From Chromatiaceae bacterium (GTDB lineage Bacteria > Pseudomonadota > Gammaproteobacteria > Chromatiales > Chromatiaceae), in the NCBI GenBank assembly GCA_013426805.1, contig JACDZG010000012.1:1-64000 (forward strand): a DNA stretch of 64,000 bases, given 5' to 3'. Shown in pieces: positions 35,441 to 42,623 of the stretch. How positions within the stretch are numbered: the first letter of the stretch is position 1; every line of letters begins with the position of its first letter. Made by a program: the position numbers and the translations under genes. Below the pieces are notes generated by a model. It was not told the DNA's origin and did no database searches. It was given only the letters and a program-made list of their open reading frames with translations.

Positions 35441-35491
35441 TAGCGGCTGTCAGCCTTTCACTGCCGTTTGCAAGATGAACGCCAAGGGTTC

Positions 35492-36370
35492 CTATGCGGA
35501 GATCTTGAACTCCTCAATGTGCCCACGTATCTCCGTCGGCACGGCGTTATTTTCGCGCATCCGACGCGCAAGTTCTGCGCGCTTTTCATCGAACCGGATG
35601 CCGGTGCGATGGCTCACGTATTTGAGAGCGGCCTTGCCGTCCAACATGCGCACGAGGCGCTCCCAACGATTCAGCGCGGGAGCCGCAGGCGCATCAAATC
35701 GATCAATGCTTTGACGGTGCTCCACGAGAGCGGCCGCAGCATTGGTAGCCCCTTGCTTCAACAGAAACTGCTGTAATTCATCTGTGAGGGCGGCGCCATG
35801 CCGCATTGGGTTACACCCGAATCCGACCGCCGGTGAGGGCACATTGGCTGCAATAGCCGTGACGGTTGCGGCGGACCTGTCTTTTAGCTCGTCGGCGCAG
35901 TTCAGGCAGAACGCCGTCGTCGAGACCGCCGTATGCGTCGAAGTCATCCTTGCGTCGTTGGCCACCGTAGCCATGGCGTCCGGGTCCAGCAGGTAGTTCT
36001 CAAGCTCCCAACGCAGCAGGACACGAATGTGCTCTCCGTAGGGCCGCTCAGAGAGAAATTCCGGATCCCGATCCTGCCACCACAGAGGCCAATTGTGATC
36101 GTTCAGCAGCACGTCTCGGTCCACGAGGCCGAATGCGCTAATCCCGTTGGCTCTCGCCTGAGCAACAAGATCAATGACGGCCTTACAGCCACCACCGCCG
36201 GATTCCTGTTCGCAGGTATCGGCGGGCTGGAAAAAGACCTCTTGGCCTTCATCGAAAAACCAACGCTTGGCGACGATCTGGAAGTCCTCCTCAGACTCCA
36301 GAAAGACCACCGCCCCGCCACGCTGCTTGAGGACCAACTGATCCGACTGCTTCATCTTGAATCCGCTCAT
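35492..36370 (-). CDS. DUF4435/TOPRIM-like protein (AriB-like), last gene of the dnd operon
   Basis: 292 residues. The N-terminal strand with acidic residues (GAVVFLESEEDFQIVAKRWF), the second acidic motif (ISAFGLVDRDVLLNDHNWPL) and HIRVLLRWELENYLLDPDAM reproduce the DUF4435/TOPRIM layout found in AriB of the PARIS system and related ATPase partners. LRWELENYLLDP is the most characteristic stretch. A nuclease effector role is inferred from family. It follows the AAA ATPase gene by 16 bases and is the distal gene of a five-gene operon starting with dndC. The initiator could also be the Met five codons later. Confidence 0.75.
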   Translation of the reverse strand: MSGFKMKQSDQLVLKQRGGAVVFLESEEDFQIVAKRWFFDEGQEVFFQPADTCEQESGGGGCKAVIDLVAQARANGISAFGLVDRDVLLNDHNWPLWWQDRDPEFLSERPYGEHIRVLLRWELENYLLDPDAMATVANDARMTSTHTAVSTTAFCLNCADELKDRSAATVTAIAANVPSPAVGFGCNPMRHGAALTDELQQFLLKQGATNAAAALVEHRQSIDRFDAPAAPALNRWERLVRMLDGKAALKYVSHRTGIRFDEKRAELARRMRENNAVPTEIRGHIEEFKISA

Positions 36371-36386
36371 GGCCCCGCCTTGCCTG

Positions 36387-37532
36387 CTAGCGCAGGTTTT
36401 CCTCGATTATCCAGCCGCCCTTTATCAAGCCTTCCTCGCGGATATCCATGGGGAAAGCCTCAAGAATTTCGACCGAGTGTGTTGCCGCGATGACCGTGGT
36501 GCCCGGCTGTTGACGCACCTGTGTCTTCATTAAATTGAGCGCCTTGTGTTGCCAGCGGACATGGAGGTGCACATCAAGCTCGTCTACCAGGATCCAGGTG
36601 TTGCGGGTACCGTGGGCACCGATGCGCAAGAAAAGTTGCACCAGGTTCTTCTCCCCGCTGGAGAGTCGGTCCAAACGATGGGTTTGCCCCCCGCTATGCA
36701 CAACGGCCTCAGGCGGAACACGGCGAATTTCCGGTGCCAGGAATTTGTCTGGGGACCTCCCAAACACCGTGCTATTCACCGTTTTGACTGCATCCTCGAA
36801 ACTGCCGTTGCTCAGCCAGGCTAGCCAGACAAGCAGATTATCCAGTGAATCGGTCCAGTGGGTACCGTGGGAGTCGAATTCCTGTACAGAGCGGTAACCC
36901 CAATGATCCGGCTGGATGACCGGCCGCTCTTCAAACCCAAGAACTGGCGGGATGTCGCGATAAGCAGGAAAGAACAGTGCCGTGGGGAAACTTAGCGTCG
37001 AGTTGGCGAAACTCTCCGGTGCCAGGCGGCTGGAGTTGATCAGCGTATGGCGCAGGTCTTGAACGAGATCGTCATGACGGTCAATCTCCACTAATCGCCC
37101 GCGCACTCGCTGCCTGAATCCGGTTCGATGCCATTGCTCCGCCCCATATCGCTGAAGCTCCGAGTCGTCCCAAACCTTGAGAAACGTCTCCTCGCCGATT
37201 GCCCCAGCCAATAGTGACAGAACGATGCGACGGTCGGCCCCCTGCCAATAGACGCGGGTCAACACATCAAGTTGTACTCTACCCCAACCCGCATCCAGTT
37301 CCTCCTGACCGAAGCGGCTGGGTTCAGCCTCGCCGAGTTGCCGCATCAGTAAGGCCATGCAATCGAGCACCGTGGTCTTACCGCGCCCATTCTCCGACAT
37401 CAATAGGAAGATATTGCAGGGGCGGTCCTGCTCGTCGGTGAAGTCGATCTCGTAGGGCGTGCCCTGAAAGGGTCCGACGCGATCCAGAGTCAACCAGAGT
37501 GGTTGGAACTCATAGACGGTCATGTCGCTCAT
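36387..37532 (-). CDS. AAA ATPase (AriA/OLD-like) coupled to the dnd operon
   Basis: About 381 residues with ABC/SMC-like architecture. N-terminal strand LWLTLDRVGPFQGTPYEIDF is followed by Walker A IFLLMSENGRGKTTVLDCMA. Near the C-terminus come the signature RLSSGEKNLVQLFLRIG, Walker B NTWILVDELDVHLHVRWQHK and switch His TVIAATHSVEILEAFP. These are the features of AAA15-type ATPases in PARIS and OLD-like systems. The ATG at 37532 overlaps the upstream TGA (ATGA), which fixes the start and indicates translational coupling to the DndE-FtsK gene. It probably senses or regulates and controls the DUF4435-like partner. Confidence 0.85.
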   Translation of the reverse strand: MSDMTVYEFQPLWLTLDRVGPFQGTPYEIDFTDEQDRPCNIFLLMSENGRGKTTVLDCMALLMRQLGEAEPSRFGQEELDAGWGRVQLDVLTRVYWQGADRRIVLSLLAGAIGEETFLKVWDDSELQRYGAEQWHRTGFRQRVRGRLVEIDRHDDLVQDLRHTLINSSRLAPESFANSTLSFPTALFFPAYRDIPPVLGFEERPVIQPDHWGYRSVQEFDSHGTHWTDSLDNLLVWLAWLSNGSFEDAVKTVNSTVFGRSPDKFLAPEIRRVPPEAVVHSGGQTHRLDRLSSGEKNLVQLFLRIGAHGTRNTWILVDELDVHLHVRWQHKALNLMKTQVRQQPGTTVIAATHSVEILEAFPMDIREEGLIKGGWIIEENLR

Positions 37533-39058
37533 TGGGTTCTCCCGCGGACGCTTTGCAGACAAAGGCGGATGTCGTCGCTGCCAACCCTGACCCCATGGGC
37601 GCGACGGGCGGCGGTACCTGCCTGAGGCCGCAGCAACATGTCGCCGGCACCGAGTAATTTCTCGGCCCCGGTTTCGTCGAGGATAATCTTTGACTCGGCG
37701 GCGGTGCGGACGGAAAGCGCGATTCGCCCCGGCACGTTACTGCGCAATAAACCGCTGAAGGTCTCGGCATCCGGGCGCTGGGTGGCGAGCACCAGATGAA
37801 TGCCGGCGGCGCGCGCCTTCTGGGTCAAACGTATTAGGGGCGACTCGACCTCGCGGGACTGGAACAGCAGGTCCGCCATTTCTTCGACCACCACGACCAC
37901 ATAGGGCAGATCGATTCGACCCTGTTCGCGACCCTCGGCCAGGTTCGCGACTCCCTGCTGCCGTAATAAGACGGTGCGACGCTCCATCTCCGCGACCAAC
38001 GCGTCCAGCGCCTCCAGGATATCGCCGATGTCTTCCAGCGGCGCTCCTCCCATCAAGTGCGGGAAGCCCGCGTAATGGGCAAGTTCGACCCGCTTCGGGT
38101 CGATCAGGGTGAGATGAAGGTCCTGAGGCCCAAGCCGCCAGAGGAGGGACAGGAGCAGGGCATGGAGGCAGACACTCTTGCCGCTGCCGGTCGTTCCGCC
38201 CACCAAAAGGTGCGGTGCAGCGGCCAAGTCGAAGTGCACCGGCTCCCCCAGCACGTCCACCCCGGGCCAGACCGTGAGGAGCGGCACATCCGTCGCCTGG
38301 GTCGCCCAGTCCCGGAGCCGGGTGCCGGGCACCGTATGCCAGGTGTCGCGCGGACGGGGCACGTCCAGGGCCAGTACCCGCGCCTCCCGGTCGCCTTCTT
38401 CGTCTTCTTGCAGAAGGATGCCCTGACGAGTGGACAGGCCCAAGTGCAATCCGAGCTTGTCCAGACCCCGCTTGACCCGGTCATAGTGATTGACGTCGTC
38501 AAGATAGACCCGGTAGCGGCTGATACGCGGGCCGTCTTCGACGCCGCGGATCTGGGCCGAGACGCCGATCTCACGAAGCCCGGCGAGGATCTCCTGCCCC
38601 AGGTCGATGTGTGCCGGACGCGGTGTCGCGCCGACAAACAACTCGTGGTAGAGGAAACCGTGAAAATCGTGACTTGGGCGCCAAGTGGTGCGGATCTCCT
38701 GAAGGCCGCGGCGGACGTGGCGTTGCAGGTAACGACGATAACGCCGCTCCGACTCATCCCCCTGGAACATATCCTCGCCATGGTAGACGCTTAGCAGCGC
38801 GCGCATCGCCAAATCATAGTCTTGACGACCCTCCTCGTCCGCCGGAAGCCCCGCCCCCGTGATCCGGGCCAGAGCGTACTCGCTGCCGCCTAGACCGCTC
38901 CCGTCCAAATCCTCTGTGGGTGGGGTGGGGATTTGCAGCGACCGTGCCAGGGCAATGCGCAGGACGCGCAGCTTTGGGGCGCGAGGCGTGCCAAGTCCGT
39001 GAACGAGGACATCCTCAATGGTCTGCTCGTCGCGGATATCGGTGTATAGATCGGCCAT
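37529..39058 (-). CDS. DndE-like domain fused to FtsK-type DNA translocase
   Basis: 509 residues. Residues about 15-130 read like DndE: KLRVLRIALARSLQIPTP, GSEYALARITGAGLP, then a tyrosine-rich helix region ending LQRHVRRGLQEIRTTW. Residues 150-270 form an FtsK beta-like domain (EDGPRISRYRVYLDDVNHYD, LGEPVHFDLAAAPH). The motor follows: Walker A LLVGGTTGSGKSVCLHALLL (287-295), LTLIDPKRVELAHYAGFPHL, Walker B VVVVVEEMADLLFQ with Glu for the usual Asp, and ARAAGIHLVLATQRPDAETF. The C-terminal KOPS-binding winged helix is absent, as are membrane helices. It starts 3 bases after the dndD stop. DndE binds nicked DNA; fusion to a pump suggests PT modification or inspection coupled to translocation (inference). 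Confidence 0.78.
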   Translation of the reverse strand: MADLYTDIRDEQTIEDVLVHGLGTPRAPKLRVLRIALARSLQIPTPPTEDLDGSGLGGSEYALARITGAGLPADEEGRQDYDLAMRALLSVYHGEDMFQGDESERRYRRYLQRHVRRGLQEIRTTWRPSHDFHGFLYHELFVGATPRPAHIDLGQEILAGLREIGVSAQIRGVEDGPRISRYRVYLDDVNHYDRVKRGLDKLGLHLGLSTRQGILLQEDEEGDREARVLALDVPRPRDTWHTVPGTRLRDWATQATDVPLLTVWPGVDVLGEPVHFDLAAAPHLLVGGTTGSGKSVCLHALLLSLLWRLGPQDLHLTLIDPKRVELAHYAGFPHLMGGAPLEDIGDILEALDALVAEMERRTVLLRQQGVANLAEGREQGRIDLPYVVVVVEEMADLLFQSREVESPLIRLTQKARAAGIHLVLATQRPDAETFSGLLRSNVPGRIALSVRTAAESKIILDETGAEKLLGAGDMLLRPQAGTAARRAHGVRVGSDDIRLCLQSVRGRTQ

Positions 39059-39061
39059 CGG

Positions 39062-41107
39062 TCAGACCCCCTGGATCAGGTCGGCCACTGTCACCGGCTC
39101 GGGAACCGTGTGCTCGCCGTCGGGATTGGTCAGGCGGTAGGCACGGTAGACATGCCCGGCAATCAGTTGGAGTTTGCGCGCATCGAGTTCCGCGTCTGTG
39201 GGCAAGACGATGACCTGGGTCGCGGCATTGGGGTAGTAGTAGCGCAACATAGCCTCTTGGTGGGCCAAGTCGATGCGGGCCAGCGGAGTGTCGACCACCA
39301 ATGGCACCTGCTTCCCAGAGACCTCGCTTAGCGCCCACAGAAGGGCAGTTGCCATAAGCTGCTTCATGCCCGCAGAAAGGTTCCCCATGCCGATGGGCTG
39401 CGATTCCCGGTCCAGGTATCGCAATCCGAAATCGTCGTCCACCTCCACTCGCTCGATCAGCGGGTGTGAGGTCATTAGAACTCGAAAGTGGCGATTAATT
39501 GCCGCCTCCAACTCTTCCCGTTGGGCTCGTTTGCGTGCACTCTTGAGTTCAGCAAAGAGGCTTCCAAGACGGCGGGCAGTGGCGATCTTGTCTTCGGTAA
39601 CTCGATTCTTACCAATCTTTGTTTTGGTCTGCTCCGCTTTGCTACGGACCTCGGAAAGCCTGCGTTGCAGGCTGGCGGACTCCGTTTCGATGTCCACGTG
39701 CCGCTTCTTCTTGGTGTCCAGGCCACGCTCCAGTTCGTCGCGTTCCGCCACATAGCGGTCATAGCGCGCCCGCTCCTCTTCAGAGAGCGCACCCACGTTC
39801 AGCAGATCAGCCTCTAATTGGTGCAACTCGCCGGTGAACCCTTGAACGCGGCGCAGTTCCTCAGCCCGGGCCGAGCGCAGTGCCTCGGCTTGGGCGTAGG
39901 GGGCGAGTTGGTCCCGCGACGCCGAGGCCGCTTGCGGGTCTGGGGCGAACGAGGGATCCATGGTGTCGCTGGCCGCTTCCGCCTCTCGCTCCAGGAGACG
40001 CACCAATTTGTACCTATAGTAGGCGCGCTGACCGTCGCGGATGTCAGGGTCGGGGAACTCCGGCAGATCGAACAGATGTCCTGGCAAGACTTCCAGAAGG
40101 GACTCTAAGACCCGGCTCCGGGAATTGGCGTCGCTGCCAAGTACCCGGTCCAGTCTTTCCAGTGCCCGCCTGATCAGGGACGGATTAACTAGGAGTGCGA
40201 TGTCCCGCGGGATCTGGGCCGAGATCCGGTCCAGCGCCTCGGCTCGCTGCGCCTGGATCCGTTCTCGTGTTTCTTTGAGCTGCGCTTCGTCGTGGCGATG
40301 CACGAAGCTACTCAGTCCTTCGATACGGCGGCGGATGCGGCGTAGCGCGTCCGTGTCGTTTTCGATCTCCTCTTTCAGGTTGGCCCGCTTCCCGTCCAAG
40401 GCCGCGAGTTCAGCCCCGATCCCGCGAGCTTCCCCCTCAAGACGCTCTAGGTCAGCTCGGGCCTGTGGGTCCAGATCATTATGTTGCCAGCGGCCGATTG
40501 CTTTGTTCAGGGCGTCCCGTAGTGCCTCAATGGCGCCGATCCCAAGGAGGCGTTCCATCTGGCGTTGTTGCGCATCTCGGTTGGCCTCCGCTAACTCCTC
40601 GATTTGTTCGCCATCAAACAGGAAAAAATACAGATAGTCCCTAGGCAGGCGGCGGTCGAGAAACTCTTGAGCCTCATCGTCTGCGAAAGTCTCGGTAGCG
40701 GTCGTGACGGTTAAGGATTCGTCGCCGTCCCAGGCCCCGTTCTCGATGCGCCAGGTCCGTTCCGCGGTAACCTGGCCACTGTCCTCACTCCAGGTCAGTC
40801 GAACTGCGCAGCGGGTTTGACCCTCTCTACGCGCCCGTCGGTTCATGATCCCCCACCAATCGTTACCGGCACCCACCACGTACTGGTTGGGCGAAGGTAT
40901 ACGCGAGCGCTGAACCGCGCGCCGCAACGGCTCGTAATTAACACCGGTGAAGAGGAGCTTGAGTCCGTTGAGCAGGCTGGTCTTGCCGAAGCCGTTGCGA
41001 CCCATGATCAGGCAGACATTGCGCCCGGGCTCGGGAGTGCCCAAGTCGATCTGCTGCCCCCCGTAGTAGGAGAACAAGTTGGTGAGTCGAATGCTCTCAA
41101 AAATCAT
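39062..41107 (-). CDS. dndD: DNA sulfur modification ATPase DndD
   Basis: 681 residues, an SMC/Rad50-like ATPase. The N-terminus FESIRLTNLFSYYGGQQIDL is followed by Walker A NVCLIMGRNGFGKTSLLNGL, a DndD-typical LFTGVNYEPLRRAV, and YLYFFLFDGEQIEELAEANR. The middle is a long coiled coil (residues about 200-560). The C-terminus has LSAGMKQLMATALLWALSEV and LVVDTPLARIDLAHQEAML. DndD supplies ATPase activity during phosphorothioate insertion. The ATG overlaps the dndC stop (ATGA), so the two are coupled. No CxxC zinc hook is seen in the coiled coil. Confidence 0.92.
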   Translation of the reverse strand: MIFESIRLTNLFSYYGGQQIDLGTPEPGRNVCLIMGRNGFGKTSLLNGLKLLFTGVNYEPLRRAVQRSRIPSPNQYVVGAGNDWWGIMNRRARREGQTRCAVRLTWSEDSGQVTAERTWRIENGAWDGDESLTVTTATETFADDEAQEFLDRRLPRDYLYFFLFDGEQIEELAEANRDAQQRQMERLLGIGAIEALRDALNKAIGRWQHNDLDPQARADLERLEGEARGIGAELAALDGKRANLKEEIENDTDALRRIRRRIEGLSSFVHRHDEAQLKETRERIQAQRAEALDRISAQIPRDIALLVNPSLIRRALERLDRVLGSDANSRSRVLESLLEVLPGHLFDLPEFPDPDIRDGQRAYYRYKLVRLLEREAEAASDTMDPSFAPDPQAASASRDQLAPYAQAEALRSARAEELRRVQGFTGELHQLEADLLNVGALSEEERARYDRYVAERDELERGLDTKKKRHVDIETESASLQRRLSEVRSKAEQTKTKIGKNRVTEDKIATARRLGSLFAELKSARKRAQREELEAAINRHFRVLMTSHPLIERVEVDDDFGLRYLDRESQPIGMGNLSAGMKQLMATALLWALSEVSGKQVPLVVDTPLARIDLAHQEAMLRYYYPNAATQVIVLPTDAELDARKLQLIAGHVYRAYRLTNPDGEHTVPEPVTVADLIQGV

Positions 41108-42474
41108 GGAGCTGGCTCGGTCCTGTCGGCCTGTCGGACGGCGTTCTCGACGACCTTGATCACGTCGTCCAGAAGCTGCTGACGACTACTCGGGCTGTCG
41201 AGCGATGCATATCGGTCAGTGACTAGGCTATAAAGGTCCGTGGCCCAGATGTTCTGGACCTCGAACCTGGGGGCTAGGTCCTCGATGAGTGCGAGATCCC
41301 TGGATAGGTCTTCTGACGTGAGGGTCAAGGTTCCAACCTCCCTTCCGTAGTCTCTGGCAATGGCTAATGCGCTGTTAGTGACATCGAACTTCTCGGCCCA
41401 CTGCTGCTGAATGTAAGCAATCTCGGCATCTTCGATCAACCGGCGACCTACGGTCTTCTCCAGTTCCAGAAGCCGGCGCAGGATCAGTTTGCAGGTCTCC
41501 GAGCTGAAGGGTCCGGGTCCGATGGACTCGTTGCGGCGGATGCCGTCACGCTTGCTGGTGTCTTCACGTATCTCTTTGAGCCAGTTGCGGAATTCATTTA
41601 ATGGTTGCATCCAGGCCGCACCCGAGTCGATGAACCCGCGCATGGATTTGTCCTCCTTGACCACGGTACAGGTCCAGCAGCCGAAACGGCTTCCCCCGCA
41701 TGATGGCGTGTTCAGGTCAAAGACTACCGGGCACTCGCCGCCGCTCGCCTGCCGGTAGAGGTCGAGCATGAAGTCGTGAGTACCGCCCCAGGGCGGCGGG
41801 TTACGAGTAAAGAGATATTCCCAAACCTGATCCGTCGACCAGTCCGCGATCGGTGTCATCACCAGGGCGTCAGGGATTTCGCCATGGGGATTCAGGCCGC
41901 GACTGTTGGTGGCGCGACCCTCCATCCGCTGCGCGCGGCTGGCGCTCTCGTCCAGACGGGTGCCCAAGAGCAGGACGACTCCGCCGTGCGCGCGCACGAT
42001 GCCGTCAATCACGGCCCGTGAGGGCTTGATCTTCATCTTGGTCGTGCACCAGCGGAACCAACGGGTCGGTGACGGATACCCCTTGCCGATCAGGTTCCCC
42101 CAGAAGCTCTGCTCAGGGGTCGGCTGAACCCGGTGCACGTAGACCGGCAGTCCGTTGGCACGGGCATGGCTGGCGACCCGCGACAGGCGGTCCGCCAGAT
42201 ACTCCTCAACGTTCGGTGCCTCAACGCGCGTGTCGGAGGCGACTATGAAGATCGGTTTTTTTGCGCTTGACCCGAGTTCGAGGATCAGGTCGTAGACCAA
42301 CTGCAGGACCAGCGTCGAGTCCTTGCCGCCGGAATACGCAACCACCCAGGCGCGCTGATCGGCGAAGTAGTGCCTGCGCAGGGAGTCGCGGGTTTCCTCG
42401 ACGTGTTCGTCGACCGGAACCGGAACCGACTCTGGGTTGGTTAGAGATTGCATCGATATCTGTGCGGGCGTCAT
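41104..42474 (-). CDS. dndC: DNA sulfurtransferase DndC (PAPS-reductase-like)
   Basis: 456 residues. The PP-loop AWVVAYSGGKDSTLVLQLVY (around residues 48-54) activates substrate with ATP. FRWCTTKMKIKPSRAVIDG and the Cys-rich cluster PSCGGSRFGCWTCTVVKEDK bind the iron-sulfur cluster known from DndC. GTRLDESASRAQRM is another family block. It is the first gene of the operon dndC-dndD-dndE::ftsK-AAA-DUF4435. No dndB repressor gene lies upstream and no dndA cysteine desulfurase is in the window, so a housekeeping desulfurase may supply sulfur. No clear promoter was recognised in the GC-rich stretch just upstream. Confidence 0.93.
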   Translation of the reverse strand: MTPAQISMQSLTNPESVPVPVDEHVEETRDSLRRHYFADQRAWVVAYSGGKDSTLVLQLVYDLILELGSSAKKPIFIVASDTRVEAPNVEEYLADRLSRVASHARANGLPVYVHRVQPTPEQSFWGNLIGKGYPSPTRWFRWCTTKMKIKPSRAVIDGIVRAHGGVVLLLGTRLDESASRAQRMEGRATNSRGLNPHGEIPDALVMTPIADWSTDQVWEYLFTRNPPPWGGTHDFMLDLYRQASGGECPVVFDLNTPSCGGSRFGCWTCTVVKEDKSMRGFIDSGAAWMQPLNEFRNWLKEIREDTSKRDGIRRNESIGPGPFSSETCKLILRRLLELEKTVGRRLIEDAEIAYIQQQWAEKFDVTNSALAIARDYGREVGTLTLTSEDLSRDLALIEDLAPRFEVQNIWATDLYSLVTDRYASLDSPSSRQQLLDDVIKVVENAVRQADRTEPAP

Positions 42475-42623
42475 GAGTTTCGCGTGATTCTACTCGGGAA
42501 CTTGGCGAGCAGGACGAAGTTCGCAGGCTGTGGCGGGGGATTCCGGATCGGTGGAGGGTCGGCAGCCAAGGGCAACTGAACGCGCGGGTCGGGGTTCTTG
42601 AGCGGTCGAACGGAATTTATCTA

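What the first reader, a model, noticed from the sequence alone, without database searches (positions are those of the whole stretch)
37529..39058. DndE-like domain fused to an FtsK-type DNA translocase
In known phosphorothioation operons DndE is a small stand-alone protein after DndD. Here the gene in that position starts with a DndE-like segment (about residues 15-130) and continues with an FtsK beta domain and motor with Walker A GGTTGSGKS. The motor has no membrane helices and no gamma domain. A moving modification or inspection complex would be a mechanism different from static DndE. I do not know how far this fusion has been described.
Basis: partly seen in the sequence, partly recalled or inferred. 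Interest (0 to 1): 0.82.

Follow-up and report, generated by a model that had tools for sequence, protein, structure and literature searches.

The report
DNA-sulfur operon with motor and suicide pair
The gene is a real fusion of a DNA-sulfur-modification protein (DndE) to a DNA-pumping motor, a fusion already in the literature, but here it sits in a fixed five-gene cassette that ends in a pair resembling the PARIS suicide-defence proteins, a combination I found described nowhere in the papers I could search.

Summary
The gene at 37529-39058 lies on the minus strand. Residues 1-125 are a DndE domain (all 21 close homologues match PF08870) and residues 139-509 are a complete soluble FtsK alpha-beta motor. 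[quoted passage not shown] The less expected part is what follows. The gene is the third of a tight five-gene operon, DndC-DndD-DndE:FtsK-AriA-AriB, whose last two genes encode an OLD-type ABC ATPase and a DUF4435/Toprim protein with the fold of the PARIS tRNA nuclease AriB (Z 16.3 over 257 residues). The order recurs in 26 of 29 loci of this fusion lineage, from Acidobacteriota, Thermodesulfobacteriota and several proteobacterial groups. A second, diverged copy lies in the same genome. A near relative has the empty site. Three loci also carry a complete stand-alone DndC-DndD-DndE upstream, which suggests that DndD2-DndE:FtsK-AriA-AriB is an effector arm and the window a compact version. Best reading: a phosphorothioation system with a motorised DndE, guarded by a PARIS-like abortive pair. 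I classify it as a new variant of known kinds. The function is inferred, not shown.

The parts
41104..42474 (-). DndC, phosphorothioation sulfurtransferase (456 aa), first gene
   Evidence: TIGR03183 356 bits, cut-off 290.4; Cys 248, 259, 266, 269 invariant in 16 of 16 loci
39062..41107 (-). DndD, ABC ATPase with coiled coil (681 aa); start overlaps the dndC stop (ATGA)
   Evidence: TIGR03185 250.2 bits, cut-off 245.85; no CxC/CxxC hook, only two Cys
37529..39058 (-). DndE:FtsK fusion (509 aa), the gene of the finding; 3-nt gap after dndD
38684..39058 (-). DndE domain, residues 1-125 (tandem ribbon-helix-helix layout in the model)
   Evidence: PF08870 in 21 of 21 homologues; secondary structure strand 4-5, H8-21, H30-41, strand 60-61, H63-67/H82-93, long H101-125
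38369..38644 (-). FtsK alpha domain, residues 139-230 (approximate)
   Evidence: PF17854 28.9 bits over cut-off 22.9 in homologue L011, 14.5 bits in the window; fold alignment from residue 139
37532..38341 (-). FtsK beta (RecA-like) motor, residues 240-509, ending without a gamma domain
   Evidence: FtsK structures Z 41-43
38174..38200 (-). Walker A GGTTGSGKS, residues 287-295
   Evidence: G288, G291, G293, K294 invariant in 33 of 33
36387..37532 (-). AriA-like OLD-type ABC ATPase (381 aa); its ATG overlaps the fusion's TGA stop
   Evidence: AAA_21 3.5e-11; AriA and PtuA PADLOC profiles; Walker A, LSSGE, Walker B, His switch conserved
35492..36370 (-). AriB-like DUF4435/Toprim protein (292 aa), last gene
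   Evidence: DUF4435 0.0014; AriB 8e-6; E25, D29, D84-R-D86 invariant in 20 of 20; fold = PARIS AriB
35441..42610 (.). extent of the insert: absent from a near relative (94% identical flanks), where the flanks are 239 bp apart

Best explanation
This is one self-contained, horizontally spreading defence operon. DndC, DndD and the DndE part of the fusion form a phosphorothioate (PT) modification/inspection complex. The fused FtsK motor is expected to assemble as a hexamer on double-stranded DNA and move that complex, or pull DNA through it, in place of static binding by DndE. There is no DndFGH or SspE-type restriction gene in the operon; its effector is the AriA/AriB-like pair. By analogy with PARIS, AriA holds AriB inactive and releases it when the complex is blocked by a phage anti-restriction protein or engages DNA that lacks the mark; AriB then cuts RNA, probably tRNA, and stops growth. 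In loci with a second complete DndC-DndD-DndE, the DndD2-DndE:FtsK-AriA-AriB set would be the sensing and effector arm. Shown here: gene identities, domain boundaries, folds, motif conservation, operon structure, co-inheritance, mobility. Inferred: motor movement, PT chemistry in this host, the trigger, the AriB substrate.
For: Five genes are packed with ATGA overlaps or gaps of 3-16 nt. The order recurs in 26 of 29 loci of this fusion lineage, across three phyla. Protein distances correlate across all five genes, Mantel r 0.78-0.91, 0 of 2000 permutations. In 398 genomes of the phylum, 11 carry the fusion and 11 carry this AriA lineage, 10 shared against 0.3 expected, P 5e-18. In 72,556 plasmids this AriA lineage is found in only two records, both beside the fusion. 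The AriB model (pLDDT 92) matches PARIS AriB at Z 16.3 over 257 residues, next best OLD Toprim Z 8.6, with an invariant Glu and DxD. Motor and DndC Fe-S motifs are intact. The whole unit is absent from the orthologous site of a near relative. A PARIS-like pair inside another modification-based defence (BREX) is known (PMC12839542, PMC9009780).
Against: No experiment, no methylome or PT map, no phage test. AriA by sequence is as close to PtuA/retron ATPases as to AriA. No AriA structure was predicted. Three loci of the same lineage lack AriAB (L016, L019, L096), two other fusion lineages lack it wholly, and one genome has this AriAB pair without dnd within about 9 kb (L110), so the pair is not obligatory. 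Co-inheritance along an operon does not prove physical interaction; shared ancestry alone raises the Mantel values.
Confidence: 0.55

Rival explanations
1. The DndD-DndE:FtsK pair is a pure reader/restriction arm, comparable to the PbeC-PbeD pair, that scans DNA with its motor and reports to AriAB; PT marking is done mostly by other enzymes, and the DndC of the compact operon is what remains of a separate modification module.
For: In L075, L078 and L022 a complete DndC-DndD1-DndE(-small protein) precedes DndD2-DndE:FtsK-AriA-AriB. Window DndD groups with DndD2, not DndD1 (783 against 227 bits in L022). DndC is decayed or missing in L008 and L015 while the other four genes are intact.
Against: Most compact loci, the window included, hold an intact DndC with all Fe-S cysteines, and the window genome has no stand-alone DndE.
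Confidence: 0.25
2. Two independent defences travel together: a Dnd system that merely marks DNA, and an unrelated PARIS-like pair that guards any anti-restriction event, with no functional link.
For: PARIS exists on its own elsewhere; L110 holds this AriAB lineage without dnd; L016, L019, L096 hold the fusion without AriAB.
Against: Fixed order with ATGA coupling to the fusion gene, 10 of 12 genomes share both, near exclusivity of this AriA lineage to the fusion in plasmids and genomes.
Confidence: 0.15
3. The motor serves delivery or segregation of the element's own DNA (a transfer protein captured by chance next to dnd genes).
For: The motor is of FtsK/TcpA type.
Against: No relaxase, integrase or transfer gene was seen among the genes flanking the cassette, the fusion follows DndD wherever that side is held, and it lacks the gamma domain and membrane part of FtsK.
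Confidence: 0.03

Closest known systems
DndE-HerA/FtsK fusions in Dnd modification systems (Rakesh et al. 2024, PMC10853773, clade-3; citing Krishnan et al. 2020, not held)
   Same: DndE fused to a HerA/FtsK domain in one polypeptide, next to a DndD-related ABC ATPase
   Different: The main text gives no gene order beyond this and does not mention PARIS, AriA or DUF4435; figures and supplements could not be read, so a drawing of the neighbourhood may exist there.
Canonical DndBCDE/DndFGH phosphorothioation defence
   Same: DndC and DndD pass the family cut-offs; DndE domain present; operon order C-D-E
   Different: DndE is fused to a motor; no DndB, DndF, DndG or DndH in the operon; ends in AriA/AriB-like genes
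PARIS (AriA/AriB)
   Same: Two adjacent genes, OLD-type ABC ATPase plus DUF4435/Toprim protein; AriB fold matches over nearly its full length
   Different: AriA is 381 aa against 464 in the solved structures, similar only in the ATPase core by sequence; embedded in a Dnd operon; trigger unknown
PARIS-like pairs in BREX loci (StySA; PMC12839542)
   Same: The same kind of pair placed inside a DNA-modification defence operon
   Different: Methylation-based BREX rather than phosphorothioation; no DndE:FtsK
PbeABCD / CxC-ABC systems
   Same: A second ABC ATPase-DndE pair beside DndCDE, as in L022 and L075
   Different: Pbe uses an HKD nuclease-helicase and CxC-type ATPase; here no CxC motif, a motor on DndE, and AriAB

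Membership tests
DndE (PF08870) | profile match above the curated cut-off | tested here: met
   Window 21-24 bits, just under 25; homologues 28.4-35.4 bits; 21 of 21 match at E<=0.01
DndE (PF08870) | two tandem ribbon-helix-helix units with a long second H2 | tested here: inconclusive
   Secondary-structure order in the model fits; the fold lists were filled by FtsK chains, so no direct match of this part to a DndE structure
FtsK/SpoIIIE DNA translocase | alpha-beta motor with Walker A, Walker B and conserved arginines | tested here: met
FtsK/SpoIIIE DNA translocase | N-terminal membrane helices and C-terminal gamma (KOPS-reading) domain of cellular FtsK | tested here: not met
   No hydrophobic stretch, no gamma match at E<=1: a translocase motor, not cellular FtsK
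Dnd phosphorothioation system | DndC and DndD above cut-off, Fe-S cysteines intact | tested here: met
Dnd phosphorothioation system | cysteine desulfurase (DndA or IscS) available | tested here: met
   No dedicated DndA above cut-off; four IscS-like desulfurases at E<1e-90 in the genome; a desulfurase heads the L075 operon
Dnd phosphorothioation system | sulfur actually present in the DNA backbone | not testable with these tools
   needs mass spectrometry or PT sequencing
PARIS | AriB-type DUF4435/Toprim effector | tested here: met
   Foldseek rank 1 and 2 are PARIS AriB, prob 1.00 and 0.99; Z 16.3; invariant E25 and D84-x-D86
PARIS | AriA-type ABC ATPase | tested here: inconclusive
   ABC motifs conserved; AriA structures 43.6 bits, PtuA/retron ATPases up to 51 bits; best PADLOC profile PtuA for the window, AriA for L010
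PARIS | triggered by an anti-restriction protein, cleaves tRNA | not testable with these tools
   experiment needed
PbeC (CxC-clade ABC ATPase) | CxC zinc-hook motif in the coiled coil | tested here: not met
   only Cys 32 and 100, no CxC/CxxC, although PADLOC PbeC profiles score highest

The most novel reading that the evidence does not exclude
A modification-guarded suicide system: a motor-driven DndC-DndD-DndE:FtsK complex patrols DNA for the phosphorothioate mark and reports its own obstruction, or unmarked DNA, directly to an AriA/AriB-type pair, so that marking, inspection and abortive RNA cleavage are one physical machine.
Probability: 0.35. Interest if true: 0.78.

Novelty: new variant of a known kind. 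Interest (0 to 1): 0.55.

Why it matters
Dnd systems without DndFGH have no clear effector, and whether phosphorothioation can be tied to abortive infection is open. A conserved operon that joins PT enzymes, a DNA motor and a PARIS-like pair gives a small, clonable test of that link, and a second case after BREX of such a pair built into a modification defence. The loci with two DndD-DndE pairs let the marking and sensing roles be separated genetically.

Tried and rejected
Chance or annotation artefact: rejected; the ORF is conserved full length in 33 proteins. Stand-alone dndE elsewhere in the genome: none. N-terminal profile against PDB sequences: no match even at E 10, so the DndE call rests on Pfam and secondary structure. 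AriB profile against PDB sequences: only chance matches; the fold search settled it. The fold search of the whole fusion is filled by motors, so a DndE structure match could not be seen. Phages: only FtsK-motor matches, none covering 80% of the protein; no AriA relative in viral contigs. Krishnan 2020 is not held. Promoter and terminator scans were at chance level. Paper searches for Dnd together with PARIS, AriA/AriB or DUF4435 gave no paper describing the combination. That is absence from one open library, not proof of novelty.

Full report
What is there. The ORF at 37529-39058 is on the minus strand and encodes 509 aa. It is the third gene of a five-gene operon read leftwards: DndC (42474-41104), DndD (41107-39062), the fusion (39058-37529), an ABC ATPase (37532-36387) and a DUF4435/Toprim protein (36370-35492). 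DndC and DndD pass the NCBIfam cut-offs. DndC keeps four cysteines that are invariant in all 16 homologues compared, and DndD has no CxC hook, so it is not of the Pbe type. The junctions are ATGA overlaps (dndC/dndD and fusion/ATPase) or gaps of 3 and 16 nt.

The fusion. The DndE match in the window alone is weak (21 bits). It becomes firm with relatives: all 21 N-terminal segments match PF08870, several above the curated cut-off, and the model shows strand-helix-helix twice, with a long last helix, as described for DndE in PMC10853773. The rest is a full FtsK alpha-beta motor: 3e-91 to solved FtsK motors by profile, Z 42.7 over 360 residues by structure, with the Walker motifs and arginines R416 and R445 invariant in 33 sequences. 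There is no membrane segment and no gamma domain.

Already known. Rakesh et al. 2024 state that clade-3 HerA/FtsK domains occur in a subset of Dnd modification systems, adjacent to a DndD-related ATPase and fused to DndE. The fusion itself is therefore not a discovery.

What may be new. The two genes after the fusion are a PARIS-like pair. The last protein was modelled at pLDDT 92; its two best PDB matches are AriB of PARIS, far above OLD Toprim domains (Z 16.3 and 15.9 against 8.6), and its Toprim Glu and DxD are invariant in 20 sequences. The ATPase has intact ABC motifs but by sequence cannot be told apart from PtuA-type ATPases, so 'AriA-like' rests on its partner. Of 29 loci of this fusion lineage, 26 carry the ATPase directly after the fusion; L016, L019 and L096 do not. 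Hosts include Acidobacteriota, Thermodesulfobacteriota and several groups of Pseudomonadota (Accumulibacter, Chromatiaceae, Magnetococcales, Mariprofundaceae). Two other lineages of DndE:FtsK fusion (Helicobacter; Burkholderiales/Thiobacillus/Neisseria/Rhizobium) lack the pair. In a sample of 398 genomes of the phylum the fusion and this ATPase lineage coincide in 10 of 12 genomes that have either. The exceptions are G253 (fusion only) and G127 (pair only, L110).

Two-pair loci. In Mesorhizobium plasmid pM0123d (L075), Rhizobium sp. RCAM05350 (L078; the frames there are broken) and a Holophagae genome (L022) a complete DndC-DndD-DndE set is followed by a second DndD, the fusion, AriA and AriB. 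The stand-alone DndE of L022 scores 132 bits. The window's DndD belongs with the second DndD. This suggests that the fused pair arose, or at least can serve, as a sensing/effector arm, and that the window holds a compact form in which one DndD and one DndE serve all roles. The direction of that evolution is not settled: the tree does not resolve L022 and L075 well (long branches).

Mobility. In a near relative (flanks about 94% identical) sthA and the next gene are 239 bp apart, where the window holds 7.17 kb; another relative has an unrelated 2.3-kb insert at the same place. Only 2 of 8 genomes of the genus have the fusion, and the nearest copy (95% protein identity) is in another genus (G030). 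The own genome has a second operon, 47% identical at the fusion, on contig C221.

How it most likely works. From established knowledge of the families, DndC supplies sulfur transfer, DndD-DndE clamps DNA, FtsK motors form hexamers that move double-stranded DNA, and PARIS AriA holds AriB until a phage anti-restriction protein binds (PMC12409363). I infer that the motor moves the modification/inspection complex and that AriA guards it. The guard idea is borrowed from PARIS and from PARIS-like pairs in BREX. No step of the mechanism was shown here.

Limits. The literature search covers one open library; Krishnan 2020 and all figures and supplements were out of reach. No structure of AriA was predicted, and the DndE part was not folded on its own.

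Noticed in passing
L046:7238-14346 (own genome, contig C221): A second, diverged DndC-DndD-DndE:FtsK-AriA-AriB operon in the same genome (fusion 47% identical); the assembly has about 4% estimated contamination.
   Followed up: partly
L051 (own genome, contig C255): A third DndC with a DndB (PF14072) and an HNH_2 nuclease, no DndD or DndE seen on the 9.3-kb contig.
   Followed up: partly
L047:16-4455 (own genome, contig C312): A 1479-aa protein with a DndH-type HerA/FtsK C-terminus and SspH-like middle, followed by a weak SspB match: a separate PT-related restriction piece.
   Followed up: partly
L068:6758-9092: At the same site downstream of sthA, genome G006 carries a different 2.3-kb insert with a 515-aa repeat-rich protein, so the site looks like an insertion hotspot.
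   Followed up: partly
L003:7068-9674, L007:3942-6548, L019:11258-13816: An ~860-aa protein lies beside three of the operons; it looks to me like the PT-associated putative methyltransferase (TIGR04096), a family that the window genome has on contig C348 and L078 has annotated beside its operon. The three proteins themselves were not scanned against that model.
   Followed up: partly
L044:7222-12231: AriA and AriB are intact while DndD and the fusion are mostly deleted (100 and 82 aa left).
   Followed up: no
L110:9103-11262: The same AriA/AriB lineage without any dnd gene nearby, downstream of an ORF that looks like an FHA-domain protein (recognised by eye, not scanned).
   Followed up: partly
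L096:5315-5563 and L076:8500-8703: A TusA-like sulfur carrier directly follows the fusion in two loci that lack AriAB (annotated in L076, recognised by eye in L096).
   Followed up: no
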